From assembly GCA_032871835.1 (NCBI GenBank), contig CM065303.1, positions 57,574,597-57,638,596 of the forward strand: a stretch of DNA of 64,000 bases, read 5' to 3'. A program made the position numbers and the translations under genes. The notes under the pieces are model-generated. The model was given only the letters and a program-made list of their open reading frames with translations, was not told the origin of the DNA and made no database searches. How positions within the stretch are numbered: position 1 is the first letter of the stretch; each line of letters opens with the position of its first letter. This stretch comes from Dipteronia dyeriana (Eukaryota; Streptophyta; Magnoliopsida; Sapindales; Sapindaceae). Positions 41,868 to 63,479 of the stretch are shown in pieces.

Positions 41868-41985
41868 GTTCATTTTGTTGTATTGTATTTATATTGGGTA
41901 ATTAAAATGTACTAAAATAATATAATACAACATTATATTATTTTAATATATTTTAATTGTTTAATACAACAAACACTGTATTAAG
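41868..41985. mobile_element. Small palindromic MITE-like element at the MULE A left end
   Basis: TTGTTGTATTGTATTT at one end and TTTAATACAACAAACA at the other, with AATTAAAATGTACTAAAATA opposed to TATTTTAATATATTTTAATT inside, so the block folds into one hairpin of about 110 bp. It adjoins or replaces the outer part of the MULE A left terminal repeat. Confidence 0.55.
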
Positions 41986-42329
41986 TTTAAAAGACACATA
42001 TTATGGTGAACTGTCCAAATTATCCCTAAACTGTAATTTTTTAAAATGTCCATTTTGAACTCGTTGGTATCTCTCCAAAAAAATTGTCTGAAAAGCTTAA
42101 CTCTCTCTCTAGATTCTGCAGTAGAAGGTAACAAATATTTATGATCTTCACTTAAATTTCTTTTATGCATTTTAGATATTTTGCATTCAATTATGTGTGG
42201 GTTAACAATGTATCCATTCCTCGATATCAATGTATCCATTTCAGATTCTGCTGCAGAATGCTTTTTTCTTGTATGACCGAGAATATTTAAAGATGAATCA
42301 AGCTTATTTTATATTGGATCGAGCTGTTG

Positions 42330-43185
42330 TTAGTTTGAAAAAAGCTCGATTATTCGAAAAATATGCTCGACAAAAAATGCTCTATCCCTTAGGAAAAGTT
42401 CTCGATCCCTGGACAAAGGTTCTCGAACCGTTATAAAAGTTCTCGATCCCTGGACAAATAATCTCCATCCCTTTAAAAAGTTCTCGATCCCTTAAAAACT
42501 TTCTCGATCCGTTAGGAAAAGTTCTCGATCCTTTAGAAAAAGTTCTCGGTCCCTTCGAAAATGTTCTCGATCATTTGAGAAAAGATCTCGATCCCTTGAT
42601 AAAAGTTCTAGATAATTTGAAAAATATTCTCGATCCCTTAAAAAAGTTCTCGAACCATTTAAAAAGTTCTCGTTCCGTTGTTAACAGTTCTCGATCCGTT
42701 AGAAAAACTTCTCGTTCCGTTGTTAAAAGTTCTCGATCCCTTGATAAAAGTTCTCGATAATTTGAAAAATATTCTCGATCCCTTAAAAAAGTTCTCGAAC
42801 CGTTAAAAAAGTTCTCGAACCGTTAAAAAGGTTCTCGATCCGTTAGAAAAAATTCTCGTTCTGTTGTTAAAAGTTCTCGATCCCTTAGAAAAAGTTGTCG
42901 TTCCCTTTTTAAAAGTTCTCGATCCCTTGATAAAAGTTCTCGATAATTTGATAAATATTCTCGATCCCTTTAAAAAGTAGTCGAATCATTAGAAATGTTC
43001 TCGATCCCTTAGAAAAAGTTCTCGTTCCCTTGTTAAAAGTTCTCGAACCGTTATAAAAAGTTCTCGATAATTTGACAAATATTCTCGATAAAAGTTCTCG
43101 AATTGAACCTTTTTTAAAGTTATCGATCCTTTGTAAATTGTTCTCGATCCCTTATAAAAAGTACTCGATCCATTTGAAAATTTTG
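42330..43185 (+). repeat. Left CTCGATC array of MULE A
   Basis: Several dozen degenerate units of about 18-21 bp with consensus GTTCTCGATCCCTTAAAAAA, all in the same orientation. Spacing is near-regular and the TCTCGAT core is the most conserved part. The array lies between the terminal repeat and the MURA start codon, so it may be transcribed as leader. It can be read as a repetitive LDPLKKVL-type peptide, but no start or homology supports translation. Confidence 0.9.
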
Positions 43186-43260
43186 AAATTTTTAGTAATT
43201 GTAAAATTAATTTTGTTTTATCTGTTAATAATTGATAGTGATGATGATTTTCACAGGACA

Positions 43261-46030
43261 ATGGATCGGGTTAGATTAATAATATCTTACAACGGTTGAT
43301 GGGAGCAATTAGCTGATGGAAGTCAGAGGTTTCTTGATTCCGATAACCAAGGAATGTATGTGTCCAGATATATGACTTACAAAGAGCTGATGTCGATTGT
43401 ACAAACCGTTGTGAAGTACGATGTGAACAAATACATTGATGATCTACAATCAATATCAATCTTTCCCAGGATAACATGTCACACATTTATAAGAAATGAC
43501 GACGATGTTTTGTTTATGCTAGGGGAAGATAGGGTAATCCCTCAAGTATGTGTCAGTTTAATTGAGAGGGTTGCAGGAGGTGTCATCGGTGAAGAAATCC
43601 CTCGTCATGATAACACCCAACAATTTCGATCTTCAGACGGAAGCAACTAGTTGTTGACAGAAAGAAGTGGGAATGACGGTAGGGAAAACCTATATGGTGT
43701 CCCACCGGAAGTAGCCGACCATGGTGATATAGTTGGAGCTCAACTGGACGATGATTTCGGTTGTCAAATTGAAATAAACGCTGGGCAGTACAACCACCAA
43801 TACAATGAGATGTACAATGACATGAACAATGAGCGGAACAATGAACCTCATAACCTACCAATCCATGAGGTGGGTAATGAGGCAAATGTGCATCCGGTAC
43901 ATAATGTACCGAACAATGAGGAAGATAAAGAACCGCTCGAAACGGGAAGACGTGCAAGACGTGTCAATAGATGTAGTTCCACTGCAGTAGATATAGCTGG
44001 GACATCTGAGTACCGGCCTGATGTAACTCCAGCTGAGTCTGAGAATGCCAGAACGTGGGTTATTCCAAGAGCAGAATCATACTCGTTTGGTATGGGTGGA
44101 AGCAGGAACTTGGTAGAAGATGAACCTACCAGCATGATATATAAAGGTCAATGTTTTCCTACTAAAAAGGATTTGAAGAGATTGGCTGGCCATTTTGCAA
44201 TGCGGCACAACTTTGAGTGGAAGGTGAAAAGGTCGAATAAGACAACATTACATCTGGTTTGTTTGATGGACAACTGTACATGGAAGTTAAGAGTGGTTAG
44301 GAGAGATGAAGCAACATACTTTCAAGTACGAAGTTTTATCAACGAGCACACTTGTCCGTTGGAGGAGATTCACCGCCGGCATCGATAAGCTAGTGCAGTC
44401 ATAATTGGAAAAGTGGTTGCACCTAGATTGCAGCAACATGATGGTCGACTAATGCGTCTGAAGGACATAATCGCCGACATGAAAACAATGTATGGCATCC
44501 AAATAATGTACAGTAAGGCACATCAAGCCCTTGATTATGCATTGTCACTTACCTATGGAACGCATGAGGAAAGCTTCCAACTGCTGCCATCATTCGGTTA
44601 CGTGTTGGAATAACAAAATCCTGGAACGATTACTGACTTACAGTGCGATGAAAATGGTAAATTCCTACACTTTTCATGTCGTTGGGTGCCTCACTCAGAG
44701 GATTCCAGAGGTGTATGCGTTCAGTTATTGCCGTTGATGATACCCATTTAAAGGGTAGATTCGGGGGCACAATGTTTTTTGCAACTGCACAAGATGGGAA
44801 TGAACAGGTTTATCCAATTGCTTTTGGGTACGGTGACTTGGAAAACAACCTATCATGGGAGTGGTTTTTGGATTCCTTGAAAGATGCCCTTGGTCATATA
44901 GATGATTTGGTTTTCATTTCTAATCGACATGCAATCATTAAAGTAGGGATTTCTAAAATGTTCCCTTATGCCACTCATACCATATATTGCTGGCACTTTT
45001 ATGAAAATATTAAGAAGAGATATCATAGAAAGGATGTGGCCGCAATAATGGATAAAGCAGCCCGAACGTACACCGAGTTGCAATATAACCGGCACATGGA
45101 AGAGTTACGCAACTTGCACCCGAATGCATATGAATATGTAATTGATGTAGGTCCATACAAGTGGTCCCGTGTTCACTACCCCGACAGAAGGTATAGGGTC
45201 ATGACAACAAATGTTGCAGAATGCATAAACTCATACCTTAAATTTGCACGGCAACTGCCTATATTGACTTTGACAGAGTTTATTAGGAATATGCTACAAT
45301 GTTGGTTTCATGATTGTCATAGGGTTGCACAATCCATACGTCATCAGTTGACCGACGCAGCACATCTTTTGATCCTGAAACGTGTTGAAAAGTGCAATTT
45401 TTTTGACTGTTAATCCAGTAGACTGGAATATATTTTCGGTGAAACGGGTTGGATTACAGTGGACCGTAGACTTAGCCCGGAAGACCTACACATGTAACAA
45501 ATTCCAAATGGACCTTCTTCCATGTTCTCACGCTCTCGCTGCTGTAAGGTACATCATACAATTTTGTGTACGGTTAATATTACTTAAACATCATACAAAT
45601 TTATCATCGTTTTCAATGTTTTTACAGGGACCGAAACATGGATTTCACATCCCTTTGTGGGGACTACTATAAGCGATAAACACTTATTGATGCGTACTTG
45701 GTTCCTATTATACCGGTTGAACATCCTTCCACTTGGATTGTGCCATCTGACATCGTTGAGAGAGTCGTTTTGAATCCAAGCTCTAGGAGACAAGCAGGCC
45801 GCCCGAGGGCTTCACGCCGTATCTCGTCTTCGGAGAGAACATCCATACAGAATTGTAGACGATGTCGACAACCAGGGCATAATTCGAGGAGATGTTCTAA
45901 CCCAGCTTTTACTGATGAAGATCCGAGCAGAGTCATTCCTGAGGAATACAGACGCAAGTGTAGTATCTGTCATACTGTTGGTCACAACAGACAGACGTGT
46001 CCTACTAGAGACGGTGGGACCGTGGAATGA
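43261..46030 (+). pseudogene. MURA-type transposase of MULE A (mudrA-like)
   Basis: Starts MDRVRLIISYNG. The order of domains is a MuDR N-terminal segment (43354-43600), an acidic linker, the MuDR Cys/His DNA-binding region (FPTKKDLKRLAGHFAMRHNF at about 44160, LVCLMDNCTWKLRV, HTCP), and a transposase core from 44700 (VIAVDDTHLKGRFGG, HTIYCWHFYENIKKRYH). A SWIM zinc finger (TYTCNKFQMDLLPCSHALAA, about 45488-45545), an intron at 45549-45627 and two CCHC knuckles (CRRCRQPGHNSRRC, CSICHTVGHNRQTC) end it. The product would cut and rejoin element ends. Breaks are TGA 43297, TAG 43648, TAA 44386, TAA 44611, a frameshift near 44670, a frameshift in a T-run near 45400, and TAA 45677. The usual second catalytic Asp (ISDRH) reads ISNRH. 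It is inactive as it stands. Confidence 0.93.
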
Positions 46031-46129
46031 ATTGAGGCGTTATAATGATGACATTGTTAAAATTTGAACTCGTATGACTTATTAAGTAACTGAAATGCAA
46101 TTGTATTTAAATATGATTTGTATATATAT

Positions 46130-46300
46130 ACAAATGTAAAAAAAATTATACAAAAGAATTGGTAAATATACAAAACTGTTGGTACATATACAAAAGAATT
46201 TGTAAATATACAAAAGAATTTGTAAATATACAAAAGAATTTGTAAATATACAAAGTAATTGGAACATATAAAAAAGAATTGGTACGTATACACATGAATT
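46130..46300. repeat. 20-bp tandem repeat between convergent MULE genes
   Basis: About seven units of TTTGTAAATATACAAAAGAA, four nearly perfect in the centre (46190-46255). It sits in the short gap between the MURA stop and the Ulp1 stop, where the two transcripts end head-on. It might serve 3' ends, but this is inference. Confidence 0.85.
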
Positions 46301-46311
46301 ACTACAGAAAT

Positions 46312-47664
46312 CTATATGGGCCAGGAGTTTACAAATATTTCAACCGCCATCTTCTCCCGAATGATCCCCATATCGTCTTCAGACCAATCGATTTTTTTTT
46401 GTTCGCTAGTATGTACTCGATCAATCTCAACGTGTGAGGACCACAATTACCCCTGAAGTTGGACACATTAACAAACACGTTAATAAAACATTAGGTTTAT
46501 ACTAATACAATCTTAAAGTGACTATTACGTAATGTCTTACGATTGCTTCTGCTGGGGGATATGTTTTCCAGACACGACTCTGACATCAAAGGGCTTATTT
46601 GTCTTCTCAAATTTCAGTAGTCATGCCGCTCGTTTAGTATGAAATCCGGCCTGATGCAATATCGAGGGCACAAAGTAGCGCAACGGGGCTACCTGCTGCT
46701 TTCGGATATGAGCTTGGACCTCCTGTCTCTAGGGGTCGACTATGAACATCTTCCCGCATGTGAGGTCCACAGTCACCAGCAGCCAATGTTAGCGCCCAAT
46801 GTTGCACGGTATCAGGACCTAGAAACGTCAACAATAGGTGTTAGGATGTACAAAGCCATTTATATATACAATTGCAAACCATGTGAAGTAACACTTACCA
46901 TGTCAACCTCGTGCCACAGACGGCATCCAATCGGGGCACCACCAAGGACCGTTGTGAGGTCATCATCCTTCCACCAAGACCTCAAAACATTCCAACGGCT
47001 CGGGGTGATCTGCCAGCGAGAATCGCGAGGCATCATTTTCTTGTACTGGTGCTCCATAAAGGACTGCAGAAACAAAAACACAAAATTTTAATTGTTTTCC
47101 ATACACACATAAAACAACACGTAATCATTATTAATTTCAGTACTTACAAAAAATTACGAGTCCAATATGTTAACCATCTGACTATACACATTCGTCAAAG
47201 CCCGTTGATGCTTCCAAAGAATATGGAGGTACGCGTCCATATGCTGGGAATTAAAACACGTTAAGATATGTTAGGATGCGTACACATCTAAAACAAATAC
47301 TAAAATCAGGATTTACGATTCCACATACCTCATCATCAACATCTATGAAGTTGGTCTGCCACCGATGGAACCATGCAGCATCAACAGGCTCCAGCATATC
47401 GACATCAGGTCTGCATTAATGTTCCATCAGCTATACATTTATATAATGCATTACAAGAAAAACGGCCACCTAAATGACAATTAATTTTACTTACAGTTCC
47501 CCGTTTACGTTCTTCTTGAAGGCTCGGTACGCCTTCAACTGGGTATCGTCCACCAGTTTCTGGGGATTAAATACGTGGTCAGGTCCCTCTACTATTAACC
47601 TCGTCCTCTAAGGTCAGCATGGATCTGTGTACGGGCTAACCAACTGCCAACCGCGCTTCAGTAC
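46312..47664 (-). pseudogene. Ulp1-type C48 peptidase, C-terminal half (MULE A)
   Basis: Minus-strand exons: HMDAYLHILWKHQRALTNVY (about 47240-47160), an exon at about 47063-46900 (MMPRDSRWQITPSRWNVLRS, GCRLWHEVDM), then HWLLVTVDLTCGKMFIVDP (about 46788-46732) with the His (codon 46786-46788) and Asp (46735-46737) of the C48 triad. Next comes HIRKQQVAPLRYFVPSIL. IPQQKQS is followed by an intron to 46453, and SGNCGPHTLRLIEYILA carries the Cys (46443-46445) and the usual Gln. Ulp1/SENP peptidases remove SUMO-type modifiers; the role of the MULE copies is unknown. Breaks: TAG directly after VDP, further stops, and a frame change in the A-run near 46393 before DWSEDDMGIIREKMAVEIFV. The gene continues beyond the retrotransposon at 57395. 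Confidence 0.85.
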
Positions 47665-49262
47665 TGAAAAGTCTTCATTTGTTGATTGGCTTATTTCGTG
47701 AACAACCACATTGTTGGGGTTCATATAAGGGTAGCTTAGGCTCTCAAGACCTCAAGAGAAGAAGCATTAAAGGTAAAATTCTTGTGCTTACTTACTTTGA
47801 AGAGATAGTTGCACACACTCACATATTCATGCATAACTCTTGATCTTATATGTTGAGTGTTTTCTTGCGTGCATTTTAGTTTAAATGACTCTTGTTGACC
47901 TATTTGCATCTTGCTATGAAAGTTGTATGTCATGCTAGGCATTAAAAATATGATGCAATTTCATCACTCTTGAACTTATTGTTTTTGTGCATTTGAGTGT
48001 TGAAAAAATAGGCCTTGCGCTGGTGATGCGCTACTCGACCAGCGCACCTCACCAACGCAACATTCACAGTGGACCACCGCTAGTCATGCACAACTGAGCT
48101 GCGTTGCTGCACCAGCGTGTAGTTAAAAAATGTGGCCGTGCGCTGGTGGTGCGCTACTCGTCTAGCACAGGCTCACCAGCGCAAACATCCCAGAGAATCT
48201 GCGCTTGTGTTGAGCTACTGGGATGCACCATTCGACCATCGCCTGTTTTAAAAATAGGTTGTGCGCTGGTGGTGTTCTACTCGGCCAGTGCACGTCACCA
48301 GCGCACACAGAGGAAGCTGGAACATTTTTTCCAAAATGACCCCACTTTGTTTGGATCTTATATATATATAACTCAATTCCTTAAGGTCGTGTATGAGTTC
48401 AGAATATCACATTTCTTCCTTAAAACACATTTCAAAGGAAAAACAATTCCATGGACTCATTTTTAATCACTCAAAGCATTCCCATGAGCATTAAATCTTC
48501 ATTTTGCATCTTCTAAGTTCATCTAGAGTGCATCTATGGATAGAGTTGCTTCATCACATCTTGTTTGGTAAGTTCTTCACTATCTTCTTACAAGTTAAGT
48601 GTTTTGCTTATTAAACCATCTCTTTAATTATTTATATGCTCTTAGAACATTCTTAGAATCAAATTAGAGATTGTTGTGATGCCATGATTGAGTGTTGTAT
48701 TGTGATAGCTTCATAGGATTGTTTGATCTATGTTTAGCTAAGCTTCTTGAACATGTCATTTAGCTTTTGATATCTAGGATTGTATTAATTGTCATCTCAT
48801 TATTCTAGATAAGCATATAGGGTTTCCTAGCCTTGTTTGTTCATTGAATATCATCATATATTCACTTAGGACACTTTATCTCTTCATTGAGAAGTAAGAC
48901 TTGTGTTGCTTCCGGGAGTAGGTAGCTTAAAGCACAAGCATGATGAACTAGGTTCACTTATACCGGGATTAGGTAGTGGTGAAGGATTAAACTGGGATTA
49001 GGTTGTAATTCCTTTATCATTAGTGGATTCGAGGTTCTAGTGTGACGCACTCATCAGCCCGTGGTTTTTTCCATTTTGAGGGTTTCCACGTATATCTCAA
49101 GTGTTTTTACTATTTCCGTATTTATTACACTTGTGGTATCTTTGTAACTAGATAGGGGTATTTTCGTCAACTTGACTCTTAACGAAAATTGGATAAAAGT
49201 TAATTAAAATCTATTCACCCCCCTCTCTAGATTAATATTACACACCATATTATTTGTTTCAA
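47665..49262 (+). repeat. 5' LTR of SIRE-type element
   Basis: 1598 bp. It contains the 'GCGCTGGTGGTGCGCTACTC' hairpin-like block (48014-48310), a TATA-like TATATATATA (48359-48369) shortly after it, and the conserved end (CTATTCACCC... ACACACCATATTATTTGTTTCA). Confidence 0.97.
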
Positions 49263-49386
49263 TTGGTATCAGAGCAGGTTCCTAGACATACATAGGTGAT
49301 CCTAGCTCTTTTTGGTGTGTTTTGTATTTTATGTGTGTATTGATCATTCATACATTTGCATTCATATCATTCATTCATTAAACACA

Positions 49387-50612
49387 ATGAGTGGAAACGG
49401 TGGCAATGAGGGAGCTTCCAGCACTAGACCTCCACTCTTCATCGGGTTGAATTATGCCTCTTGGAAAGGCAAGATAGAGTCGTACATATGCCAAATTCAT
49501 GATAGGGCATGGATGGAAGTTGAAGATGGCTGCACTCCACCCATGATGACTCTTGCAGATAGAGGAGATGATGTACTCAAACCAAAGGCTCAGTGGAATG
49601 CACAAGAGTTTGAGGCTTCAAAGTGGAATAGGAATGCAATGCATGCCATTTTATGTGCAATTGATGATAATCAGTACAGATTGGTTCAGAACACTAGGAT
49701 AGCTAAGGAGGCTTGGGATATCCTAGAAGTTGCTCATGAGGGAACCGATGTGATTAAGGAATCGAAGCTTCAAGTTCTCCAATTGCAATTTGAATTGCTC
49801 AAGATGGATGAGAATGAGTGCTTTAAAGACTTTGAAGTGAGGTTGATGGACATTGTGAACCAAAGTCATCAACTTGGTGATCCTTATTCAGATAGGAAGA
49901 TCAAGAAGAAAATTATGAGATCTCTACTCGATATATTTGAGTCTAAGATGACGGATTTGGAAGAGAATAGTGGGTATAAGGATATAAAGCCTAGTGAAGT
50001 GATTGAGAGGCTTCTAGCTTATGAATCTAGAAAATGTCATAATCCCACACCATCAAAGAAGTAAAAGGATATTTCTTTGAAAGCCTCCAAAGTTGAAAAG
50101 GAGGAAGGTGATGACTCAGATGAAGAGATGGATTTGCTAATGAGGAAGTTCAAGAAATTCTACAAGTCCGAGAAGAAAGGCTTTGGATCCAAGGGTCAAG
50201 ACTTGAAGAAAAATGCTCCATTCAAAAAGTTTAAGCCTAGGAAAGAAAAGACAGAGAAGAAAGGAGTCCAATGCTATGAATGTGGTGGAATATGTCATTT
50301 TGCCCCGGAATGTGCAAATCATAAGAACAAAAAAAAAAGGGAAAAGTGATGGTTGCCACATGGAGTGAAAGTGATAACTCTAATGAAGGAGATGAGTCTT
50401 CGGATGATGAAGAACTCATGGCTAACTTCATAGCATTTACATCCACTCTTAAGAGCAAAGATGCTAGTGAAGAAGAGAATGATAGTCAAGAGGAAGACTA
50501 CTCAAGTGATGATGGATCTTCATCACAATCCACAAATGGAAGTGTGGATAGGATGAATCTCAAAGACTACATGGCTAAGTTTGAGAGCTCAAGACTAAAA
50601 AAACAAGAATGA
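49387..50612 (+). pseudogene. SIRE-type gag (copy 2)
   Basis: Starts MSGNGGNEGASSTRPPLFIG at 49387. It has the Copia UBN2-type gag core (NYASWKGKIESYICQIHD to KIKKKIMRSL), a Lys-rich segment, and a CCHC knuckle CYECGGICHFAPEC at about 50271-50312. An acidic Ser-rich stretch follows (SESDNSNEGDESSDDEEL) and FIAFTS, typical of SIRE gag. Breaks: TAA at 50062-50064, a one-base frame change in the A-run near 50335, and further stops after 50610. Gag would form the element's particle. Confidence 0.9.
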
Positions 50613-50676
50613 GATCAAGAGATTAAAAGAAGAAAATCTAAACCTCTCAACTCAAGTTGACCAACTAAATGAAGAG

Positions 50677-53600
50677 TTGGAAAGATCTAAGTGGAGTGAA
50701 GAAGCATTGAAGAAAGAGCCTGAAGATGCTAGAGAGTTGTTGGCCAAGATGAACTCTAGCACCAAGAAACTTGACCACATGCTAGATGTTGGAAAGAGGC
50801 CAAGTGACAAGAAGGGGCTTCGGTTTGAAGATGACAAGATGTTCTCCACTCCAAGCAAGACCATTTTTGTAAGAAGCATGAACTTCAATGAGTTATCTCC
50901 TCATTAAACTCCTAGGAAGAAGCTTGATCTAGGAGAGTGTTCAAGTAGTGCTCAAGTGAATGTGGCACCAAGAAGCCCACCTCAAGCTCATCCTACAAGG
51001 GTTCCTCAAATTAACTTCCCTCAACCAAAAGCTCACAAAGGGAAGACACCTATCATGCAAGCTCAACCAAGGAAGCAATCAAGTCTTGCTCAACAACAAA
51101 GAAGGAAAGCTCATCAACAACAAGCAAGACAACCACAAAGACATGGGAAGGCTCCAATGCATCCTCAAGGATATGGTATAATTCCTGACTTTTTACCTAC
51201 ATGTCATTTTTATGGTATTGATGGTAACATTAGACCAAATTGCTTTAGGTATATCAAATTCTGTAGGATTGAATGCATGATAGAAAAGAAAAAGGCTAGA
51301 GCCATGAAACACGATCCTAGGACATCTAGAGCCATGATGCATGATCTTAAGAAACCTAGAGCCATGATGCATGTCACTAGGAAAAGTGGAACACCTTTGC
51401 ATGATTCTAGGACATTTAGAGCCCATGTACCATTGATCACTAAGAAGAAAAATATTGCACCTAGGTGGATTAGAAAGGATGAACACATTTGTCATGTTGC
51501 ACAAATTGCTTTGAAAGCTCATTCTTGTGATTTTTGGTATTTGGATAGTGGGTGCTCTAGGCACATGACTAGAGATAAGAGTTTCTTTAAGAATCTTATG
51601 ATGGAGGAGGGAGGAAATGTCACCTTTGGTGATGGATCCAAAAAGAAGGTCAAAGGAAAAGGAACCATTTCCATTCCCGGATTACCTTCCTTGTCCAATG
51701 CTTTGTATGTTGATGGCCTAAAAGCCAATTTGATAAGAATTTCACATCTTAGTGATGATGGACTCTCCGTCTTGTTTAGGGAAAATGATTGTTCTATCCT
51801 ATTGCCTAATGGACAAACTTTGTTAAAAGGTATGAGGTCTAGTGACAATTGCTATTGTCTTGAGGTTAGAAGTGTGTCTTGTAATGTGTCCAAGGATGAA
51901 CAAATAGAGTTGTGAAATGAAAGGCTTGGTCACATGAACTTTAGGGATTTAAGAATCTTAGATTGGTTCAATGTTGTGCTAGGCCTTCATAAGCTTGGGA
52001 AAAAAGTTAATAGTGTTGGTGGACCTTGCCAACAAGGGAAGCAAACCAAAAGTATGCACAAAAAGGGCAAGTATATAACCACCAAAGAACCTCTAGAGCT
52101 TCTCCACATGGATCTTATGGGTCCTATGCAAACCGAGAGTTTAGGTGGAAAGAGATACATTTTTGTGTGTGTAGATGACTTCTCTAGGTATACATGGACT
52201 TATTTCCTTAGAGAAATATCTGAAACTTTTGATAAGTTTAAAATGCTTTGCTCTAAAATTCAAAATGAAATAAACTCCAAGATTAAAAGCATTAAGAGAA
52301 TTAGGAGTGACCATGGGAAGGAATTTGAGAATGCCTACTTTGAAAACTTTTGCAATAGTCTAGGCATTTCTCATTAGTTTTCGGCTCCTAGGACACCTCA
52401 ACAAAATGGAGTTGTTGAGAGGAAAATAGGGTTCTTCAAGAAATGGCCCGTGTGATGTTGCTTAGCAACAATGTCCATAGGAATCTTTGGGCTGAGGCCG
52501 TCAATACGGCATGCTACATAGGAAATAGAGTCTTCCTTAGGTCTCACACTAGGCAAACCTCCTATGAGTTATGGAAAGGTAAGAAACCAAATGTTAGCTA
52601 CTTCCACACTTTTGGAAGCAAATGCTACATTTTGAATGACCGTGATCAACTTGGAAAATTTGATGCTAAGAGTGTTGAGGGTATCTTTATTGGCTATGCC
52701 TTGATTAGTAGAGCCTATATAGTTTTTAATCTGAGAACTAGGACCGTAATGGAATCATCTAATGTTGTCATTGAATATACTAGGCTCAAAACTAATGACC
52801 ATTAGGAGGAGGTAGATTTAGTTGATGACTCCCCTTTGGAGAAAGTAGTTGATATCTTTAATGTTGAAAATGCTAATCTTGATGATGACATAGCACAACT
52901 TAGTGATAGAATTCCTCACTTGGACTCAAAAGAACATGCTTCATGGGTTAGGAAACTTCATGACAAAGATGACATTATTGGTGAAGTTAGTGAGGGTGTT
53001 AGGACTAGGCGCCAAATGGCTAATCTTATTAGCTACACTTGCTACACCTCTCAAATAAAACCCAAGAAAATTGATGAAGCGTTAAAAGATGAATTTTGGG
53101 TTCTTGCTATGTAAGAAGAGCTTAACCAATTTGAAAGAAATGAGGTTTGGACTCTAGTTCCTAGGCCTAAGAACACCAATGTGATAGGCACCAAGTGGGT
53201 ATATAGGAACAAATCCGATAAGGATGGCAACATTGTGAGAAACAAGGCTAGGCTTGTAGCACAAGTATACTCTCAAATAGAGGGTTTTGACTTTGAGGAG
53301 ACATTTGCTCCCGTTGCTAGGATTGAGTCCATTAGGCTTCTTTTATTCATTTCTTGTTTGCACAAGTTCAAATTATATCAAATGGATGTTAAGAGTGCCT
53401 TCCTCAATGGTTTCTTGCAAGAGGAAGTGTTTGTTGAGCAACCCAAACGGTTTGTAGATCCTCACCACCCTAATCATGTCTATCACCTCAAGAAAGCTTT
53501 GTATGGGTTGAAACAAGCACCTAGGGCTTAGTATGCGTGTCTCACTCAATTTCTCATAGATAGTGGATACACTAGAGGTAGTGTTGACAAGACTCTATTC

Positions 53601-54584
53601 ATCAAGAGAGACAAATATAAGCTCTTTATAGCTCAAATCTATGTTGATGATATAGTCTTTGGTTCCACAAATGATACCAAAGTCCAACAATTTATTGATG
53701 TGATGTCTCATGAGTTTGAAATGAGTCTAGTTGGTGAGTTGAGTTACTTTCTAGGCTTACAAATTAAGCAAATGGATGATGGGATTTTCATATCTCAAGC
53801 TAAATATGCCAAAAACCTAGTGAAGAAATTTGGTCTTGAAAGTGCCAAACATTGTGATACACCCATGAGTACCACTTTGAAGCTAAACAATGATGCTAGT
53901 GGTAAAAGTGTGGACCAAACTTTATACCGTGGCATGATTGGTAGCTTGCTTTATTTGACCGCAAGTAAGCCCGATATCTCTTTTAGTGTGGATGTATATG
54001 CTAGGTACCAAGCGGATCCTAAGGATTCCCATCCCTTTTCTGTTAAGAGAATCATTCGATATGTGAATGGGACATCCAACTATGGGATTTGGTACTCTTT
54101 TGACACTAATGCTAGTCTTGTAGGCTTTAGTGATACAGATTGGGCAGGAAATTGTGATGATAGGAAAAGTACATCGGGCGGTTGCTTTTTCCTTGGGAAC
54201 AACCTCGTCTCTTGGTTTTGCAAAAAGTAAAATTCGATTTCCTTATCCACGGTTGAAGCCGAATACATTGCTGCTGGGAGTGGATGCACACAACTCCTTT
54301 GGATGAAGCAAATGCTAGTCGACTATGGATTCAATCATGGTTCTCTTACTCTCTTTTGTGATAACATGAGTGCAATTAATATTTCAAAGAATCCAGTTCA
54401 GCATTCTAGGACTAAGCACATTGACATCCATCATCATTTCATTAGAGAACTAGTTGAGAGCAAATGTATTGTACTTGAGCATGTAGGTACAAATAATCAA
54501 CTAGCGGATCTATTTACTAAACCCTTAGATGCTACTAGATTCAAGACTCTTAGTAGATCTATTGGGATTTGTTTAATGGAGTGA
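50677..54584 (+). pseudogene. SIRE-type gag end and pol: protease, integrase, RT, RNase H
   Basis: The late gag region has a second knuckle-like CHFYGIDGNIRPNC (51206). Protease shows WYLDSGCSRHMTRDK (about 51537). Integrase has MDLMGPM, RSDHGKEFEN (about 52303) and TPQQNGVVERK (about 52391). Reverse transcriptase runs from about 53115 ([47 protein letters not shown] about 53639). RNase H includes GFSDTDWAGNCDDRKSTSGG, STVEAEYIAAGSG and QLADLFTKPLD and ends at 54584. Breaks: TAA 50905, TGA 51913, TAG 52375, a one-base loss near 52425, TAG 52803, TAA 53112, TAG 53529 and TAA 54228. Everything else is in frame, so decay is moderate. Several stops fit C-to-T or G-to-A change of Gln or Trp codons. 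Confidence 0.93.
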
Positions 54585-55797
54585 TGTGTTGTGGTCTTTG
54601 ACCCCATATGGGGAACTCAAGCAAAGAGAGTCATTGTATACTTGTTGCATGCAATTTTTTTTTTCAAAATATGTTTATACCTCTTTATTGATTGCTTGAG
54701 TAGCTTGGTTGCACTTATGGTATATTGTATTTTCTTAAATAAGTGTGAAATTTGCTTTGATTACAATCCATGTCATATTTATGTTCAAACATGCATTTTT
54801 AGACTAGGAGATCTACATAGGAAGTACATTTTGAATGACCTATAATTATCTCCATGACATGATGTTTCTTTAAATGACATGCTAATGAAAAATGATAAAG
54901 CATGATTTGTTGATTGCAATTGTTAAATGCAACACATTGTGTGAAACATACTAGTGAGACTAAAATGTTTATTCAATGTCTCTCTTTCTTTATTAGTTAA
55001 ACATGGCTATTATCATACGGGTATCCTCCCGGAAAAATCAAATAGGGTGTAAAGTTGCTCATGCCTTGTTTAGCTTTCAAAGTTAGATATAGTGCCTTTA
55101 AAACTTGATATTTATAAGAACTCTATATCCTTGATTCTCTCATGACAAATGGTGAAATTGGTTTGAATTATATTGGAAACCTTTGTCATTTGCTTTTCCA
55201 AATACCATTGTTTTTTGAACTTGAATGCAACATGTCTTGTATGCAAATAACTTTTTGATTCACACATTGTCTTCAAATAAATCTCCTTATGTCTCTTCTA
55301 TCAATTGAGATTGCATAAATGTGGCTTATATAATTATGCAACAATCTTGTATGCTCTTTTCTTTCTTTGCCTTGAGTGACCCGGTTGGGGACTTCTCATT
55401 TGCCTATATCATGACAAAAAGGGGGAGTAGAATGTATTGGCTTTGAGGGGGAGCATTGCATGAGTGTACTTGTTTGAGGGGGAGATTACATGTAGGGGGA
55501 GTAACCCGTTGAGGGGGAGCATTGCATGAGCATTTCATGATATCATACTCATATTTCTAAATTCAAATGCTTTTGTTTTATATTCACGTGATCATCTCAC
55601 ATGCACTTGGTTTGGAAAGAGTATTTGTGCTTGCCTTGTGTGTAGGGTTGATAGTTCTACAAGAGATTGAAGACTTGAAGTTTTTTTTTATGTTTATCTC
55701 TTTGTAATGTAGAATATCTTCCCGGTGTTTTTCTATTTTGTTTTGTGAGGATCAATGTGAGTGGTGGTTTTGTCACGAAACAACCAAAGGGAGAGAT
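54585..55797 (+). other. Post-pol region of SIRE element
   Basis: 1.2 kb without a clear gene; SIRE relatives can carry an envelope-like ORF here, but none is recognisable. Near 55420-55530 the purine-rich word GAGGGGGAG(A/C) occurs several times, like extra polypurine tracts, before the actual tract at 55784-55797. Confidence 0.6.
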
Positions 55798-57394
55798 TGA
55801 AAAGTCCTCATTTTTTTATTGGCTTATTTCATGATCAACCACATTGCTGGAGTTCATGTAAGGGTAGCTTAGGCTCTCAAGACCTCAAGAGGAGAAGCAT
55901 CAAAGGTAAAATTCTTGTGCTTGCTTACTTACTTTGAAGAGGTAGTTGCACACACTCACATATTCATGCATAACTCTTGATCTTATATGTTGAGTGTTTT
56001 CTTGTGTTCATTTTAGTTTAAATGACTCTTGTTGACCTATTTGCATCTTGTTATGAAAGTTGTATGTCATGCTAGGCATTAAAAATAGGATGCAATTTCA
56101 TCACTCTTGAACTTATTGTTTTTGTGCATTTGAGTGTTGAAAAAATAGGCCGTGCGCTGGTGGTGCGCTACTCGACCAGCGCAACATTCATAGTGGACTG
56201 CCGCTAGTCATGGGCCACTGAGCTGCGCTGCTGCACCCGCGCGTAGTTGAAAAATGTGGGCGTGGTGGTGCGCTACTCGTCTAATGCAGCCTCACTAGTG
56301 CAAACATCTTAGAGAATCTGCGCTTGTGTTGCGCTACTAGGATGCGCCACTCGACCAGCGTCTGTTTTAAAAATAGGTTTTGCGCTTGTGGTGCGCTACT
56401 CGACCAGCGCGCTACCCGACCAACGCAAGTCACTAACACACACAGAAAGCTGGAACGTTTTTTTTCCAAAACGACCTCACTTTGTTTGGATCTTATATAT
56501 ATATATAACTCAATGCCTTAAGGTCGTGTATGAGTTCAGAATATCACATTTCTTCCTTAGAACACATTTCAAAGGAAAAACACTTTTAATAACTCATTTT
56601 TAATCACTCAAAGCATTCCCATGAGTATTAAATCTTCATCTTGCATCTTCTAAGTTCATCTAGAGTGCATCTATGGATAGGGTTGCTTCATCACATCTTG
56701 TTTGGTAAGTTCTTCCCTATCTTCTTACAAGTTAAATGTTTTGGTTACTAAACCATCTCTTTATTTATTTGTATGCTCTTAGAACATTCTTAGATACAAT
56801 TAAGAGATTGTTGTGATGCCATGATTGAGTGTTGTATTGTGATAGCTTTATAGGATTGTTTGATCTATGTTTAGCTTAGCTTCTTGAACATGTCATTTAG
56901 CTTTTGATATCTAGGATTGTATTAATTGTCATCTCATTATCCTAGATAAGCATATAGGGTTTCCTAGCCTTGTTTGTTCATTGAATATCATCACATATTC
57001 ACTTAGGACACTTTATCTCTTCATTGAGAAGTACTTGTGTTGCTTCCGGGAGTAGGTAGCTTAAAGCACAAGCATGATGAACTAGGTTCACTTATACCGG
57101 GATTAGGTAGTGGTGGAGGATTAAATCGGGATTAGGTTGTAATTCCTTTATCATTAGTGGATTCGAGGTTCTAGTGTGGCACACTCATCAGCCCGTGGTT
57201 TTTCCCATTTGGAGGTTTTCCACGTATATCTCAAGTGTTTTTACTATTTTCGCATTTATTACACTTGTGGTATCTTTGTAACTAGATAGGGGTATTTTCG
57301 TCAACTTGACTCTTAATGAAAATTGGATAAAAGTTAATTAAAATCTATTCACCCCCCCTCTAGATTAATATTACACACCATATTATTTGTTTCA
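55798..57394 (+). repeat. 3' LTR of SIRE-type element
   Basis: 1597 bp, very similar to the 5' LTR. The hairpin-like GC-rich block (56150-56440) differs from the 5' copy by small deletions and base changes. Confidence 0.97.
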
Positions 57395-57399
57395 AGTAC

Positions 57400-59660
57400 A
57401 CGTCTGGGTCCTCGAACTCCCCCCGAAGGGGTGTGCTCAGATGAGGATGAGGGAGGAGGAGTCTGCTGCTGGAAGGGAGGTGAAGGGGGAGCCTGCTGCA
57501 CAGTCGGAGGTGGAGGGGCAGGGGGAGCCTGTTGCTCGGTCTAAAATGGAGGTAGAGGTGGAGGTGGAGGTGGAGGTGGAGGTGGATGGAGAGTCTGCTA
57601 CTCGGACAACGATGCTGGGGGAGCCTGCTCATTGGTCGGAGGTCGGAGGTGGAGGTGGAGGTGGAGGTGGAGGTGGAAGAGGAGGAGGAGCCTGCTACTC
57701 GATCGGAGGTAAAGGTGGAGGGTGAGCCTACTGCTCGGACGCCAATACCGGGGGAGCCTGCTCCTCAGTCAGATGTAGAGGGGGAGGGGGAGGGGGAGGA
57801 GGAGGGGGAGAGGGAGCCTGCTCATCGCTAGAAGGTGGTGGGGGAGCCTGCTGCTCTGACGTCGGTGGATCCTGGAGCTCGCTAAGAGGTGACGGGGGAG
57901 CCTGCGAATTGCTCTGAGCTGGAGTGGGGTCGGCTGCTAGCTCAGAGGGGGAAGGGGAAGAGGAAGAGGAAGGGGAAGGGGAAGGGGAAGGGGTGGATGA
58001 GGGGGAGACTGAGCCCCACTGTCTAGAAATGCCCCTCTGGTTTGTGGATCCTCTGTATGGGTCCTGAAGACCTAAAGTCCCCCGATCAATGCAAGTAACT
58101 CCCTATGTTGTTGATGTCGATCCTCGTCGCTCTTTTGAAAAAAATCGAGCAACTCCCAGTGCTGTTGTTGTCGATCCTCCTCACTCTTCCGGAGGGCTTC
58201 ACGTAACTCCTTCAAGTTATGTTCTAAACGGGCCAGAAATCATGCAACTTTTTTAATATGAAAACAATCAACAACTCCTGTTACTAAAAAGAAAACTACC
58301 ATCTCCACTTACCTCCACATCAACTCGAACACCTGCACGGGAATCCCTTGTAGCGGAACCAGTTCCTAGGGTGGTAAACCAAACCTGCCTCATTCGCCGG
58401 TGAGACGGCTCAGATTCGCCTGTGAGACGGCTCAGATTCACCGGTGAGACGGCTGGACCTGTAGGGTCTGAAACCTCCATCTTAGTACACCTCCCACCCT
58501 CACCCTCCCCTTCCTCGGGATGAACTGCACTTGTAGTTGGCTCAAGGACAGTAGGAAGGTGAACCCTATCGTCCTGCACATACGAGCTCCCCCCTCACTC
58601 AGGCTTGCAAAGTACGGGGCCACCACCTCAGCTGCTGTGGGCACGATGTCCGTCCTCGCCGACATCTGAAAGTGTATTTAGATGAATGTCATTGTTACTT
58701 ATCGTAATTAAAAAAAATTACTTTAACAAAAAAAAATACCCTAGCACTAAAAATCTTCTTTCCTCTAGGTTGTTTGGTCAACTCCCACTTCAACAACAGA
58801 GGGGAAAGATCCGTAACCCTTCGAGTCCCGAAAATGACGCCCAGTTGGGGGATCACCTCAAAAGCAAATATTTGCATCACAAATACGTACAGTTATAATC
58901 CAAAACAATTTTTGAGTCAAAATTAAATGTACATTTTGGAAATCAAATTTCTTACCAAAAGGGCATGTGATAGACCGTAGATGTTGTACCCCTCCACAGA
59001 ATGTCCAACATCGCCCTGTGATTGTTGCCGTCTCTCCTCACGACGTCGCGGTAAGGCATGCTTGAATGAAAATATAGAATGCATATAGACGTGGGCACCC
59101 CACGGGAATGCATCAAAGGCATTGTGGTCCTCTACCAACCTAAACTGCCAAACTGGAATCTTCAATCTCTCGTCCACCCCCATCAGTATCCAGTTAAACA
59201 TGTAAATGAGGCACAACTTCACAGCATCGTACGCCTGTTGAAACTCTCCCTGGGTAAGTACCGCTGATGTATGTCATTCTCAACTGCAACATACATACTC
59301 GTGTCCGGTACGACTCTAAAACGTAATCCGGTGATGAGGCTAAATTCCACCTTCAAAAACTGCACCACATCGTTCTCTAACAAGAACTGCATCTCATCTA
59401 TCGGCCCGTCATGGTCTAGCTCCCGGACCAGCAGCTGATGAATAACACCACCCAAAAAATTCATCTCCCGGTGCATAGATATGAAATGCCCGAAACAGGA
59501 GGCCATGAACCGACGCCGATCCTCAACAGCAAACTCTTTAGGGACCTGATTAAGTGCATCGTCTTACGGGCAAGGGCTTCAAAATGGTCGTGTCTGGTCA
59601 ATTTCCCTTGAACAAATCTCCCTCTGCAGTTTTAAGCAATTCTTTCATACTACTCATCAT
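57400..59660 (-). pseudogene. DUF1985 / N-terminal half of Ulp1-type peptidase (MULE A)
   Basis: Minus-strand exons. 59506-59250 reads MHREMNFLGGVIHQLLVREL and VVQFLKVEFSLITGLRFR. After a frame change near 59250 it reads LTQGEFQQAYDAVKLCLIYM, GVDERLKIPVWQFRLVEDHN, FPWGAHVYMHSIFSF and VEGYNIYGLSHALL (to about 58955). The exon 58870-58740 reads IFAFEVIPQLGVIFGTRRVT and LLKWELTKQPRGKK, and about 58665-58560 reads ARTDIVPTAAEVVAPYFASL. This is the DUF1985 domain that precedes the Ulp1 catalytic domain in MULE-borne Ulp1-like genes. A long proline/serine-rich linker (57420-58010) follows. The catalytic half lies across the retrotransposon at 46312-47664. Confidence 0.8.
57540..58010. repeat. GGAGGT / GGGGGAG low-complexity repeats
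   Basis: Runs of GGAGGT (57547-57595, 57645-57690) and of GGGGGA/GGGGAA (57778-57815, 57945-58010). On the coding (minus) strand they give Pro-, Ser- or His/Leu-rich simple peptide, a likely disordered linker of the Ulp1-type protein. Confidence 0.9.
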
Positions 59661-59706
59661 CTGCAATGTCACAGAAACAGTACATTAGTAAACTGCATAA
59701 AAACTA

Positions 59707-60510
59707 GAAAATATTCTCGATCGTTTGAAACAAATTCTCGATACTTTTAAAATATTCTCAATCCTTTGAAAAAGTTTTCGATTTGTATAAAAAGTTCTTA
59801 ATCCTTTGCAAATAGGCTCGATCCTTTGAAATTAGTCTCGATCCTTTGTAAAACCTCTCGATTCATTGAAAAATCTTCTCGATCATTTGAAAAAGTTCTC
59901 CACCCTTTTAAAAACATTCTCGATCGTTATGAAAATACTCTCGATCCATTGAAAATACTCTCGATCCTTTGAAAAACCTTTCGATTCTTTGAAAATGTTC
60001 TCGATAAATTTAAAAAATCTCGAGCCTTTGAAAATATTCTCGAACCTTTGAAAATAGTCTCGATCCTTTGAAAAACCTCTCGATCCTTTGAAAAATCTTA
60101 TCGATCATTTTATAAAATCTGGACCCTTTGAAAAACATTCTCGATCGTTTGAAAACATTCTCGATCCTTTGAAAATAGTCTCGATACTTTGACAAACATC
60201 TCGATTCTTTGAAAAATCTTCTCGATTCGATCATTTTAAAAAATCTCGATCCTTTGAAAAACATTCTCGATCGTTATCAAAATTTTCTCGATCAATTTCA
60301 AAAAATCTCGATCTTTTCAAAATAGTCTGGATCCTTTGAAAAACCTCTCGATTCTTTGAAAAACCTCTTGATTCTTTGAAATTTTTTCTCGATCATTTAA
60401 CAAAAGCTCGATCACTTTGAAAAACGTTCTCGATCACTTTCAAAAACCTCTCGAATCTTTCTAAAAAATTTCCTCGATCTCGCTTGAAATATTCTCGATT
60501 TATTATTATT
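59707..60510 (+). repeat. Right CTCGATC array of MULE A
   Basis: Several dozen degenerate units of about 18-22 bp with consensus TTCTCGATCCTTTGAAAAAC, all in the same orientation as the left array. They differ from the left type by CCTTTG in place of CCCTTA. The array lies just upstream of the first recognisable Ulp1-gene exon, in its leader or promoter region. Confidence 0.9.
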
Positions 60511-60839
60511 TAAAAAAAATAATCCTCGATACCAGAATATTGAACCTCATTTCAAACTCAAACCAAAACCACAACCACTGTCAACCCTAATCTACAATTT
60601 CTTTCAACAGAACAAGCCTGAAATGCAATTATAAGTTATGAACAACAAATCGATAAATAAAACAAACTCAACTTACCTTTGTCAGTCGCTGCGAAATGTA
60701 CTGTATTCCCGTTCCGGTTAATAAGCTGTTGATTTTCTCGCCGTCGGTTTCTTTGTTGTCGGTTTCTTTCTCGGTTTCTTTATCACTGTTGCTTTTCTCA
60801 GACTCACAAAACGATAACTTTTCTCTCTTTTTCAATTTT

Positions 60840-60952
60840 GTGGGGGTATTCTCGTCTGTTTAGTTTAAATGGTGCATTTTAAACTTACATTACTAAACTG
60901 GTGACATTTGCACAACACCCCTCTCAAATAGTGCCATTTATTTATCGAGCCC
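60840..60952 (+). repeat. Right terminal inverted repeat of MULE A
   Basis: Reverse-complemented it reads GGGCTCGATAAATAAATGGC, then GTCACCAGTTTAGTAATG and TAAGTTTAAAATGCACC. It matches the MULE B end at 61454 over about 110 bp. Confidence 0.85.
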
Positions 60953-61443
60953 TTAATGGTATTAGGTTGTATTGTATTAGAAAAACCACTCTTTTTTCAA
61001 TAAATGATGAAATATGAATTATGTTGTTAATATATATTTTTTATAATTTTAAAATTATATAGGAAATATTTATTTTATTATAAAAATATTATTTATTTTA
61101 AAAAATTTAATGAAAATAAATATTTATTGATTTTTTATATAAAATTATTTAATGATTTATTCAGATATTTAAAATTAATTATTAACTATTTTTTTAAAAA
61201 TATATTATATTTTTTAATAAAAAAATACAATAAAGTCATATAGAAATAACGATATAATAGATCACTAAAAACATATTTGTATTAATAATAATATAGTCTA
61301 ATAAAATCCAATACAAACAAATATGATGTGTCAAACAAGCCATCAATTTATTACTTATTATCAATATTTTTTAACTATATTATAGGAATTCCAAATTAAT
61401 TTGAAGTATCAGATTAAAGGGTTTAACTATTATATTGTTGGAA
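60953..61443. other. Spacer between MULE A and MULE B
   Basis: About 490 bp, extremely AT-rich. TTGTATTGTATTAG near 60967 and CTAATAAAATCCAATACAA near 61298 face each other, so a degenerate MITE may fill most of it. No gene. Confidence 0.5.
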
Positions 61444-61919
61444 AACTATAATTGTGGTCGATAAATTATTGGCACTATTTGAAGGGTGTGTTGTGCAAAT
61501 ATCACCATTTTACTAATGTATGTTTAAAAGGCACCATTTAGTGTCATTGGACAAAAATACCCCGAACTGTTGAAAAGATAGAAAGTAGTCGTTTTGTTAG
61601 TGTGAAAAAAGCTAGAGTGAGAATGAGACCGGCGGCAATAGAATCGACGGTGAAGTGACCGGAACGTGAACGAGAATACACCAGATTTGTTACGATTGAC
61701 GAAGGTAATTTCTGTTCATTTTTTTTTCTGGATTTTGCAGTTGATAACTTGTCATTGCATGTTAGACTTGTGTTTTGTTGATTCAATTCGTAGATTATGA
61801 TTGAAAACGAGATCTGATAATGGTTGTGGTTTAGATTAGGGTTTGAAATTAGGTTTAATATATGATGAAGAAGATGAAATTCTAGGTATCGATGAATTGT
61901 AATTTTGAGAAATTTTTAA

Positions 61920-62650
61920 ATCGAGAATTTTTTTAGCGAAATCAAGGTTTTCTTGGAACTAGATCGAGGATTTCTAAGTAAGAACCGGGAAGATTTTTGA
62001 AAGAATCGAGATGATTTTTTAAAGAATCGAGCATATTTTTTCAAACGATCGAGGTTATTTTCAAGAGATCGAGAATATTTTTCAAACGATAGAGAATATT
62101 TTCTAAAGATCGAGAATATTTTGAAACGATTGAGAATAATTTTCAAAAGATAGAGAATATTTTTCAAACAATCGAGATTATTTTCAAAAGATCGAGAATA
62201 TTTTTCAAACAATAGAGATTATTTTTTAAACGATCGATAATATTTTTCAAACGATTGAGATTATTTTTCAAACGATCGAGAATATTTTTCAGAAGATCGA
62301 GAATATTTTCCAAACGATCGAGATTATTTTCAAAAGATCGAGATTATTTTTCCAAAGATCGAGATTATTTTTCGAACGATCGAGATTATTTTTCAAACAA
62401 TCGAGAATAAATTTTCAGATGATCGAGAATATTTTCTAAACGATCGAGATTATTTTTAAAAGAACGAAAATATTTTTCAAACGATCGAGATTATTTTTCA
62501 AACGTTCGAGAATATTTTCAGAAGATCGAGAATATTTTTCAAACGATCGAGATTATTTTCAAAAGATCGAGAATATTTTTCACAAACGATCGAGATTATT
62601 TTTCAAAAGATCGAGAATATTTTTCAAACGATCGAGAATATTATAAAAGG
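61920..62650 (-). repeat. MULE B array, right type
   Basis: Units of about 20 bp reading GATCGAGAATATTTTTCAAA on the plus strand, i.e. TTTGAAAAATATTCTCGATC on the element strand: the same class as 59707-60510 but more uniform. Some units appear as local higher-order duplicates (for example 62430-62650). Confidence 0.92.
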
Positions 62651-62664
62651 ATCAAGAACCGAAA

Positions 62665-62765
62665 AACCTTTGACTTCCATCAGGTAATTGCTCATATCGG
62701 CCGTTGTATGATAAGACTATTCTCACTTAATCCATTGTCCTGTGAAAATCATCATTACAAACCAT
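62665..62765 (-). pseudogene. MURA start retained in MULE B
   Basis: On the minus strand GATTTTCACAGGACAATGGA and CCTGATGGAAGTCAAAGG match the MULE A leader and first two dozen codons (43240-43335). MULE B reads YNGRYEQL where MULE A has YNG, stop, WEQL, but MULE B has its own stop at codon 3. Right after the shared GAAGTCAAAGGTTT the deletion joins it to the other array. Confidence 0.88.
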
Positions 62766-62831
62766 TATTAACAATTTAAAAAATTAAATTAAGTTTACAA
62801 TTATTAAAAATTAAAAATATTTATTAAGTGT

Positions 62832-63125
62832 AAGGGATCGAGAACATTATCAAAGGGATCGAGCTTTTTGGAAACGGATCGAGCTTTTTCCAAATAGATC
62901 GAGAACATTTTTAAGGGATCGAGACCGAGAACTTTTTTAAGAGATCGAGATATTTTTCAATGGATCTAGAATATTCTTCAAATTATCGAGTATTTTTTCG
63001 AAATAATTGAGTATTTTTTCCACATAATCGAGTTTTTTTCAAAATTTATAAAACCTCGATCCAATAACAAGTATGCTCGATTCTTCTTTAAATATTCTCG
63101 GTCACACATGAAAAATACTCGGATC
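62832..63125 (-). repeat. MULE B array, left type
   Basis: Units such as AGGGATCGAGAACATTTTTA, the inverted form of the 42330-43185 class. Shorter and more worn than the MULE A array. Confidence 0.85.
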
Positions 63126-63479
63126 TATTAAATGTTCATACATGTTCTTACAACACAGAAATGCATGTAAAAAATCAGAAATGCATGAAAACAGAAAAGA
63201 TAATACACGAGATCATAAATATTAGTTACCTTCTTGCGCAGATTCTGGAACGAGACAATTTTTTTGAAAAGAGATACAAGTTTTCAAACAACTTTTTTTG
63301 GGAGATATAAAGGAGTTCAGAAACTTGTCTTTTACAAATAAAACTTTAGGGACAATTTCGGTAGTTCACCATAATAGGTTCATTTTAAACTTAAGTTATT
63401 AAACTGGTGACATCATTACAAAAGACAATAAAAAAGATGACATATCTCACCATTTCCACAACTATAATTATAAGAGGGT

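What the first reader, a model, noticed from the sequence alone, without database searches (positions are those of the whole stretch)
42330..60510. Long CTCGATC arrays at both ends of the MULE, with end-specific consensus
Seen: two arrays of about 800 bp each, units near 20 bp, same core TCTCGATC. The left array is of CCCTTAAAAA type and the right of CCTTTGAAAA type. Both point the same way instead of mirroring each other. Such strongly homogenised subterminal arrays are more than usual MULE terminal repeats and could be transposase-binding platforms, as subterminal repeats are in other DNA transposons, or promoters of the two genes. I know no description of this exact array.
Basis: partly seen in the sequence, partly recalled or inferred. 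Interest (0 to 1): 0.85.

Follow-up and report, generated by a model that had tools for sequence, protein, structure and literature searches.

The report
Motif arrays in a plant transposon
A Mutator-like jumping gene of a maple relative carries, next to the start of each of its two genes, a long row of the same short DNA word that its own second protein probably binds to escape the plant's silencing; the trick is known from Arabidopsis, but this word and its wide spread look new.

Summary
Both about 800-bp arrays exist: 20-21-bp units, core TCTCGATC, same direction, end-specific spacers. TCTCGATC occurs 55 times in the window, all in these four arrays.

The host genome (914 Mb, Dipteronia dyeriana or nearly so) holds 8,541 exact triple-motif matches (control 0). 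The first 10 arrays taken by motif alone all adjoin ends of this MULE family. In 20 other copies all 486 exact motifs point one way. Both arrays lie in predicted 5' leader introns, of MURA and of an inward-facing second gene.

That gene encodes DUF1985 plus an Ulp1 protease. A DUF1985 profile hits VANC21 (E 2.1e-4), and two poor models both rank the VANC21-DNA crystal first. VANC21 is the Arabidopsis VANDAL protein that binds same-direction motif arrays and removes silencing.

Best explanation: a VANC-type anti-silencing landing platform, a new member of a known kind. Transposase binding fits less well because the arrays are not mirrored. Binding, hypomethylation and mobility were not tested; no sampled copy showed an uninterrupted MURA frame, and cores are not specially conserved between copies.

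The parts
41983..60952 (+). Element 1: MULE copy; right end at 60952 (...TCGAGCCC); the outermost left end is not delimited in this copy; carries a Copia insertion
   Evidence: Right end fixed by alignment with 20 copies, left-end homology starts near 41983
42128..43256 (+). Predicted 5' leader intron of MURA (AAG|GTAACA ... TTTTCACAG|GACAATGG), containing array A
   Evidence: Donor and acceptor conserved in element 2; donor GT kept in 11 of 13 aligned copies, acceptor AG in 15 of 16 (read off); coordinates. No transcript seen
42372..43182 (+). Array A (left type), core TCTCGATC, spacer CCTTAAAAAAGT-like, period 20-21
43261..46030 (+). MURA transposase gene, degenerate (in-frame stops): DBD_Tnp_Mut, MULE, SWIM and zinc-knuckle matches
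46126..46300 (.). Third, different 20-bp-period array (ATACAAAAGAATTGGTAA) between the convergent 3' ends
   Evidence: repeat words present in 15 of 15 copies in which both flanks aligned (of 20)
46330..47085 (-). 3' part of gene 2: Ulp1 protease domain (Peptidase_C48), broken
47665..57395 (+). Copia LTR retrotransposon inserted in gene 2; LTRs about 47665-49262 and 55798-57395, 91.5% identical (bounds from alignment, approximate)
57396..59660 (-). 5' part of gene 2: DUF1985 (VANC-like) and a proline-rich repetitive linker; frameshifted
   Evidence: composite 39.6 bits against cut-off 35.1; single frames 14.4 and 29.6 bits, below it; homologs; VANC21 match of homologs
59661..60676 (-). Predicted 5' leader intron of gene 2 (AAAG|GTAAGT ... 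TTGCAG|ATG), containing array B
   Evidence: donor GT kept in 19 of 20 copies, acceptor AG in 18 of 19 (read off); coordinates. No transcript seen
59707..60512 (+). Array B (right type), core TCTCGATC, spacer CTTTGAAAAATAT-like
60843..60952 (+). Right terminus of element 1 (degenerate terminal inverted repeat)
61444..61453 (.). 10-bp target-site duplication of element 2, left copy (AACTATAATT)
   Evidence: exact 10-mer found at only two places in the window
61454..63459 (-). Element 2: internally deleted, inverted relative of the MULE (right end, leader exon and donor, array C, MURA start remnant, array D, leader exon, left end)
61989..62658 (-). Array C (right type), core TCTCGATC, spacer GTTTGAAAAATAT-like
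62656..62783 (-). Remnant of the MURA start with leader-intron acceptor, 80% identical to 43213-43340
62835..63048 (-). Array D (left type, decayed), 9 units
63460..63469 (.). 10-bp target-site duplication of element 2, right copy

Best explanation
The arrays are the cis half of a VANC-type anti-silencing system. The trans half is the second gene of the same MULE, a DUF1985-Ulp1 protein related to VANC21. The protein is proposed to bind TCTCGATC words that recur every 20-21 bp, about two helical turns, all in one direction, in the leader introns of both element genes. It would load densely on the DNA and strip repressive marks (DNA methylation) from both gene starts and the ends, so that MURA and the VANC-like gene are expressed and the element can move. 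Non-autonomous derivatives keep the arrays because these let a full copy's protein activate them in trans. Shown here: array anatomy, placement, tie to this MULE family in the genome sampled, likely homology of gene 2 to VANC21. Inferred: the leader introns, that this protein binds this word, and what follows.
Confidence: 0.72

Rival explanations
1. Transposase platform: MURA binds the subterminal arrays at both ends and builds a synaptic complex, as subterminal repeats do in other DNA transposons (recalled: TnpA sites of En/Spm, AAACGG of Ac).
For: Arrays at both ends, end-specific, kept in deleted derivatives; MURA has a DNA-binding domain match.
Against: Both arrays point the same way, so the two ends are not mirrored (486 of 486); they lie in predicted leader introns about 400 bp inside the tips, while separate degenerate terminal repeats exist at the tips; the element encodes a likely VANC21 relative.
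Confidence: 0.12
2. Leader-intron enhancers or promoters: host transcription factors or intron-mediated enhancement use the arrays to drive MURA and gene 2.
For: Arrays sit in predicted 5' leader introns with conserved donors and acceptors, next to each start codon.
Against: A single direction on the element strand means opposite directions relative to the two transcripts; no host factor is indicated; similar arrays in VANDALs act through VANC (PMC5735166). Not exclusive of the best explanation.
Confidence: 0.1
3. By-product: slippage and unequal exchange made functionless minisatellites that spread by hitchhiking with the MULE, at most feeding small RNAs for RdDM.
For: No clear extra constraint on the core between copies; methylation-like decay; arrays vary in unit number among copies.
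Against: The same core at both ends with different spacers, also in a relative about 20% diverged; core better kept than spacer among units; single orientation.
Confidence: 0.06

Closest known systems
VANDAL21/VANDAL6 VANC anti-silencing systems of Arabidopsis (PMC5735166: parts 1-3 of 6 of the text read; PMC10398659: passages read)
   Same: MULE with MURA and a DUF1985 gene related to VANC; short words arrayed in one direction at high density in noncoding regions of the element; degenerate terminal repeats; a different word per family
   Different: Word TCTCGATC instead of YAGTATTAY or AGTTGTCC/AGTTGTAC; two arrays of about 800 bp in two predicted leader introns with end-specific spacers; host in Sapindaceae; second gene has an Ulp1 domain
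KI-MULEs with Kaonashi (KIU) genes, Ulp1-bearing second genes (PMC2528002 passages; PMC13317346 section 11 and passages; primary paper of 2006 not seen)
   Same: Ulp1-bearing gene in reverse orientation to mudrA; the review calls KIU genes VANC genes with an Ulp1 domain acting on their own family and reports eudicot-wide conservation
   Different: KI-MULEs are called non-TIR; here recognisable degenerate terminal repeats remain. No array of this word is named in the passages read
Eudicot VANC diversification (Sasaki et al. 2022, EMBO J; only title and reference seen; paper not held)
   Same: Recalled abstract: VANC systems in eudicots gain and lose DUF1985, DUF287 and Ulp1, and their motifs act by sequence, density and helical periodicity; non-autonomous VANDALs matter
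   Different: Cannot compare in detail; whether it lists a Sapindales motif is unknown to me
Subterminal repeat arrays of En/Spm and Ac (recalled, not fetched)
   Same: Short repeated words near both ends bound by an element protein
   Different: As recalled, those lie within the first few hundred bp, not in leader introns in one common direction

Membership tests
Mutator-like element (MULE) | MURA transposase with MULE domain | tested here: met
   PF10551 54.9 bits, PF03108 31.6, PF00872 27, all above cut-offs
Mutator-like element (MULE) | 8-11 bp target-site duplications | tested here: met
   10 bp exact for element 2; exact 9-11 bp at the shared boundary in 5 of 13 copies with both ends anchored, 1 more ambiguous in an AAT repeat, the rest near, displaced or none; element 1 of the window: none established
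VANDAL-type VANC anti-silencing MULE | VANC-homologous DUF1985 protein encoded in the element | tested here: met
   VANC21 profile hit of homologs E 2.1e-4; first structure match, from poor models
VANDAL-type VANC anti-silencing MULE | Dense same-orientation motif arrays in noncoding regions of the element | tested here: met
VANDAL-type VANC anti-silencing MULE | Absent or degenerate terminal inverted repeats | tested here: met
   Element 2 ends align weakly: score 63 against a maximum of 43 in 300 random comparisons
VANDAL-type VANC anti-silencing MULE | MURA inside the VANDAL clade | not tested
   No named VANDAL transposase was fetched and no tree was built; the clade in PMC6446971 is Brassicaceae (passages)
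VANDAL-type VANC anti-silencing MULE | VANC binds the motif and causes hypomethylation of the family | not testable with these tools
   needs binding assay and bisulfite sequencing
KI-MULE (Kaonashi) | Ulp1 domain gene in reverse orientation to mudrA | tested here: met
   Peptidase_C48 on the - strand, MURA on the + strand; both regions found in the same order in copies that hold both
KI-MULE (Kaonashi) | No terminal inverted repeats | tested here: inconclusive
   Degenerate but recognisable repeats
Captured satellite | Arrays found mainly away from MULE ends | tested here: not met
   10 of 10 arrays taken by motif alone, all from the first 2.4 Mb of C1, adjoin an end of this family; 20 of 20 right-array loci, one the window itself, carry the right end

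The most novel reading that the evidence does not exclude
A VANC system that has turned into a two-array device: a DUF1985-Ulp1 VANC reads the same word in two leader introns whose end-specific spacers let it treat the transposase gene and its own gene differently. It has in turn bred parasites of the anti-silencing itself: derivatives built from left ends and kilobase-long arrays (such as the cluster at C1:1838846-1842069, of which only the last stretch was read), drawing the protein for their own de-silencing.
Probability: 0.15. Interest if true: 0.78.

Novelty: new member of a known kind. Interest (0 to 1): 0.58.

Why it matters
It would give a VANC-type, sequence-specific anti-silencing system with its probable target word in the maple family, at a scale of thousands of motif matches in one genome. 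Ulp1-bearing VANC genes are already reported as widespread in eudicots (PMC13317346), so the new parts are the word, the paired leader-intron arrays and their spread. It offers a new protein-word pair for testing how VANC proteins and target arrays coevolve, a ready spacing test, and natural non-autonomous copies that keep the arrays after losing the genes. Such pairs have been proposed as tools for editing epigenetic states (PMC5735166).

Tried and rejected
Captured satellite: rejected in the sample, since arrays chosen by motif alone all adjoin ends of the family.

Mirrored terminal repeat or MURA platform: kept only as a rival, because of the single orientation.

Core constraint between copies: looked for and not clearly found. 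A spacer-anchored within-array tally showed no better-kept core (its anchor favours the spacer); the unanchored wraparound alignment did. Whole-array phase at 10.5 bp was not coherent.

Left type of array D: 4 of 9 with PWMs from the window, 6 of 7 with PWMs from 20 copies.

Pair counts at 24-26 bp and 30-32 bp spacing, a better test of helical phase, did not complete. A left-array genome search did not complete, so the left-array statistics come from stretches fetched by the right array, plus two left arrays in the motif-only sample. Paper searches: CTCGATC with MULE 0 papers; DUF1985 with Mutator-like 2; Dipteronia with Mutator-like 0; Sasaki 2022 not held.
Full report
Observation. The two arrays are real and as described. 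TRF and unit decomposition give array A at 42372-43182 and array B at 59707-60512, 39 core-anchored units each in the regions scanned, period 20-21, core TCTCGATC, both on the + strand. The nine-base TTCTCGATC occurs 37 times against 0.46 expected in dinucleotide shuffles, 0 of 100 reaching 37. Every TCTCGATC of the 64 kb (33 on +, 22 on -) lies in one of four arrays. The spacers after the core differ by end: CCTTAAAAAAGT-like on the left, CTTTGAAAAATAT-like on the right.

Arrays C (61989-62658) and D (about 62835-63048) on the - strand belong to a second element at 61454-63459. It is flanked by the exact 10-mer AACTATAATT at 61444 and 63460, the only two places of that 10-mer in the window. 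It consists of a right end, a leader exon and splice donor, array C, a remnant of the MURA start, array D, a leader exon and a left end, inverted with respect to element 1. With position-weight matrices from 20 genomic copies, 28 of 29 C units are right-type and 6 of 7 D units left-type; 31 of 34 A units and 27 of 32 B units fit their own end (units with at most one core mismatch). With matrices from the window alone C was clear (31 of 32) and D was not (4 of 9).

Anatomy of element 1. MURA runs rightward from 43261 with DBD_Tnp_Mut, MULE, SWIM and zinc-knuckle matches but several in-frame stops. A second gene runs leftward from 59660: DUF1985 near its start (39.6 bits, cut-off 35.1, on a composite with X at frame breaks; single frames stay below the cut-off), a proline-rich linker, and an Ulp1 protease at its end (Peptidase_C48 58.1 bits, cut-off 20.7, composite). 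A Copia retrotransposon with LTRs 91.5% identical splits it. Alignment of elements 1 and 2 and of the copies shows conserved splice donors and acceptors that place array A in a leader intron of MURA (42128-43256) and array B in a leader intron of gene 2 (60676-59661, - strand). Read off, GT of the gene 2 donor is kept in 19 of 20 copies and AG of its acceptor in 18 of 19; for MURA, 11 of 13 and 15 of 16 (the copies in which each site aligned). The introns are predictions; no transcript was seen.

Host and genome-wide distribution. The closest named proteins are from Dipteronia dyeriana and Acer. Contig C8 of the window's assembly has exactly the length, 76,278,206, listed for D. dyeriana proteins; other contigs differ slightly. 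Searching that 914-Mb genome with array B gave 4,345 first-look candidates, of which 40 were scored, on ten contigs. In 20 of 20 loci cut out (one is the window itself), leader exon and right end follow the array, and the gene 2 start precedes it in 19. These are the best matches and so biased to close copies. A motif-only scan for three exact cores at 20/21-bp spacing found 4,194 forward and 4,347 reverse matches, 0 for the reversed pattern, and 1 match at 15/16-bp spacing. I grouped the listed first places on C1 by eye and fetched the first 10 clusters (2 kb each; of the long eighth cluster only the last stretch). All lie within the first 2.4 Mb of C1, and some are probably the two ends of one element. 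10 of 10 adjoin an end of this family: six right ends (five with the gene 2 start), two left ends with MURA, and two (L047, L048) with an inverted left end after the array.

Twenty copies in detail. Stretches of 10 kb from the right end inward (20 of the 39 scored places other than the window) show the order left end, array, MURA, Ulp1, DUF1985, array, leader exon, right end, some with internal deletions or parts not found. An aligned left terminus was found in 13 of 20. All 486 exact cores point one way, 0 the other. In the 16 copies with at least 8 left units, 428 of 503 left units fit the left type; the four other copies (13 units in the search region, 1 left-type) were left out of that sum. 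558 of 641 right units of the 20 copies fit the right type. L028 is an internal deletion that keeps both arrays. Element ends are typically GAGGAAATGG... and ...TCGAGCCC, with exact 9-11 bp duplications at the shared boundary in 5 of 13 copies with both ends anchored, one ambiguous, and near, displaced or no matches in the rest. In none of the 20 was MURA one open frame; the longest is 774 aa (15 of the 20 hold the catalytic region). Transitions at C and G are raised in CG, CHG and CHH contexts in arrays and in coding regions, as expected of copies that were methylated.

Comparison with the known. In PMC5735166 (parts 1-3 of 6 read) VANC21 binds YAGTATTAY and VANC6 is linked to AGTTGTCC/AGTTGTAC. 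The motifs are arrayed in one orientation at high density in noncoding regions of the element, often as tandem repeats, including introns and upstream of the transposase gene, and VANC expression removes methylation there. PMC13317346 (section 11 and passages) calls Ulp1-carrying VANC genes KIU and describes them as conserved in eudicots. PMC2528002 (passages) gives Ulp1 in reverse orientation to mudrA as the KI-MULE arrangement, which is met here. Sasaki et al. 2022 could not be read; from memory, its abstract says that VANC motifs act by sequence, density and helical periodicity. The present element therefore looks like a new member of that kind, with a new word and very large, end-specific leader-intron arrays.

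Mechanism and doubts. I infer that the DUF1985-Ulp1 protein binds the rows of cores and lifts silencing of both gene starts, in trans also for deleted derivatives. Within arrays the core is better kept than the spacer, but between copies it is not (slightly so once CG columns are set aside), so selection, if any, acted mainly while the family was active. The single orientation speaks against a mirrored transposase platform. Binding, demethylation and activity remain to be shown.

Noticed in passing
   Followed up: yes
46126-46300: A third 20-bp-period array (ATACAAAAGAATTGGTAA), a different word, between the convergent 3' ends; its words are present in 15 of 15 copies with both flanks aligned, and interval lengths fall near 261, 280 and 298 bp in 14 of 15 (one 273), i.e. 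unit steps. Could be another binding array or a 3' end signal.
   Followed up: partly
L048 (G000:C1:1838846-1842069) and L047: A run of motif clusters over about 3.2 kb, of which the last stretch was read and ends in an inverted left end of the family; L047 has left-end matches on both sides of its array. Possibly array-rich non-autonomous derivatives.
   Followed up: partly
47665-57395: Copia LTR retrotransposon inserted in the second gene, LTRs 91.5% identical.
   Followed up: partly
57476-57993: Strings of 6-bp GGAGGT-like repeats in the proline-rich linker region of the DUF1985-Ulp1 gene. VANC variable regions are also reported to hold peptide repeats (PMC5735166).
   Followed up: no
60953-61453: About 500 bp of AT-rich sequence between the two MULE elements with a GTTGTATTGTATT word also near 41876; maybe a small MITE.
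   Followed up: no
14360-15046: Frame with a semialdehyde dehydrogenase NAD-binding domain (114 bits), a likely host gene piece.
   Followed up: no
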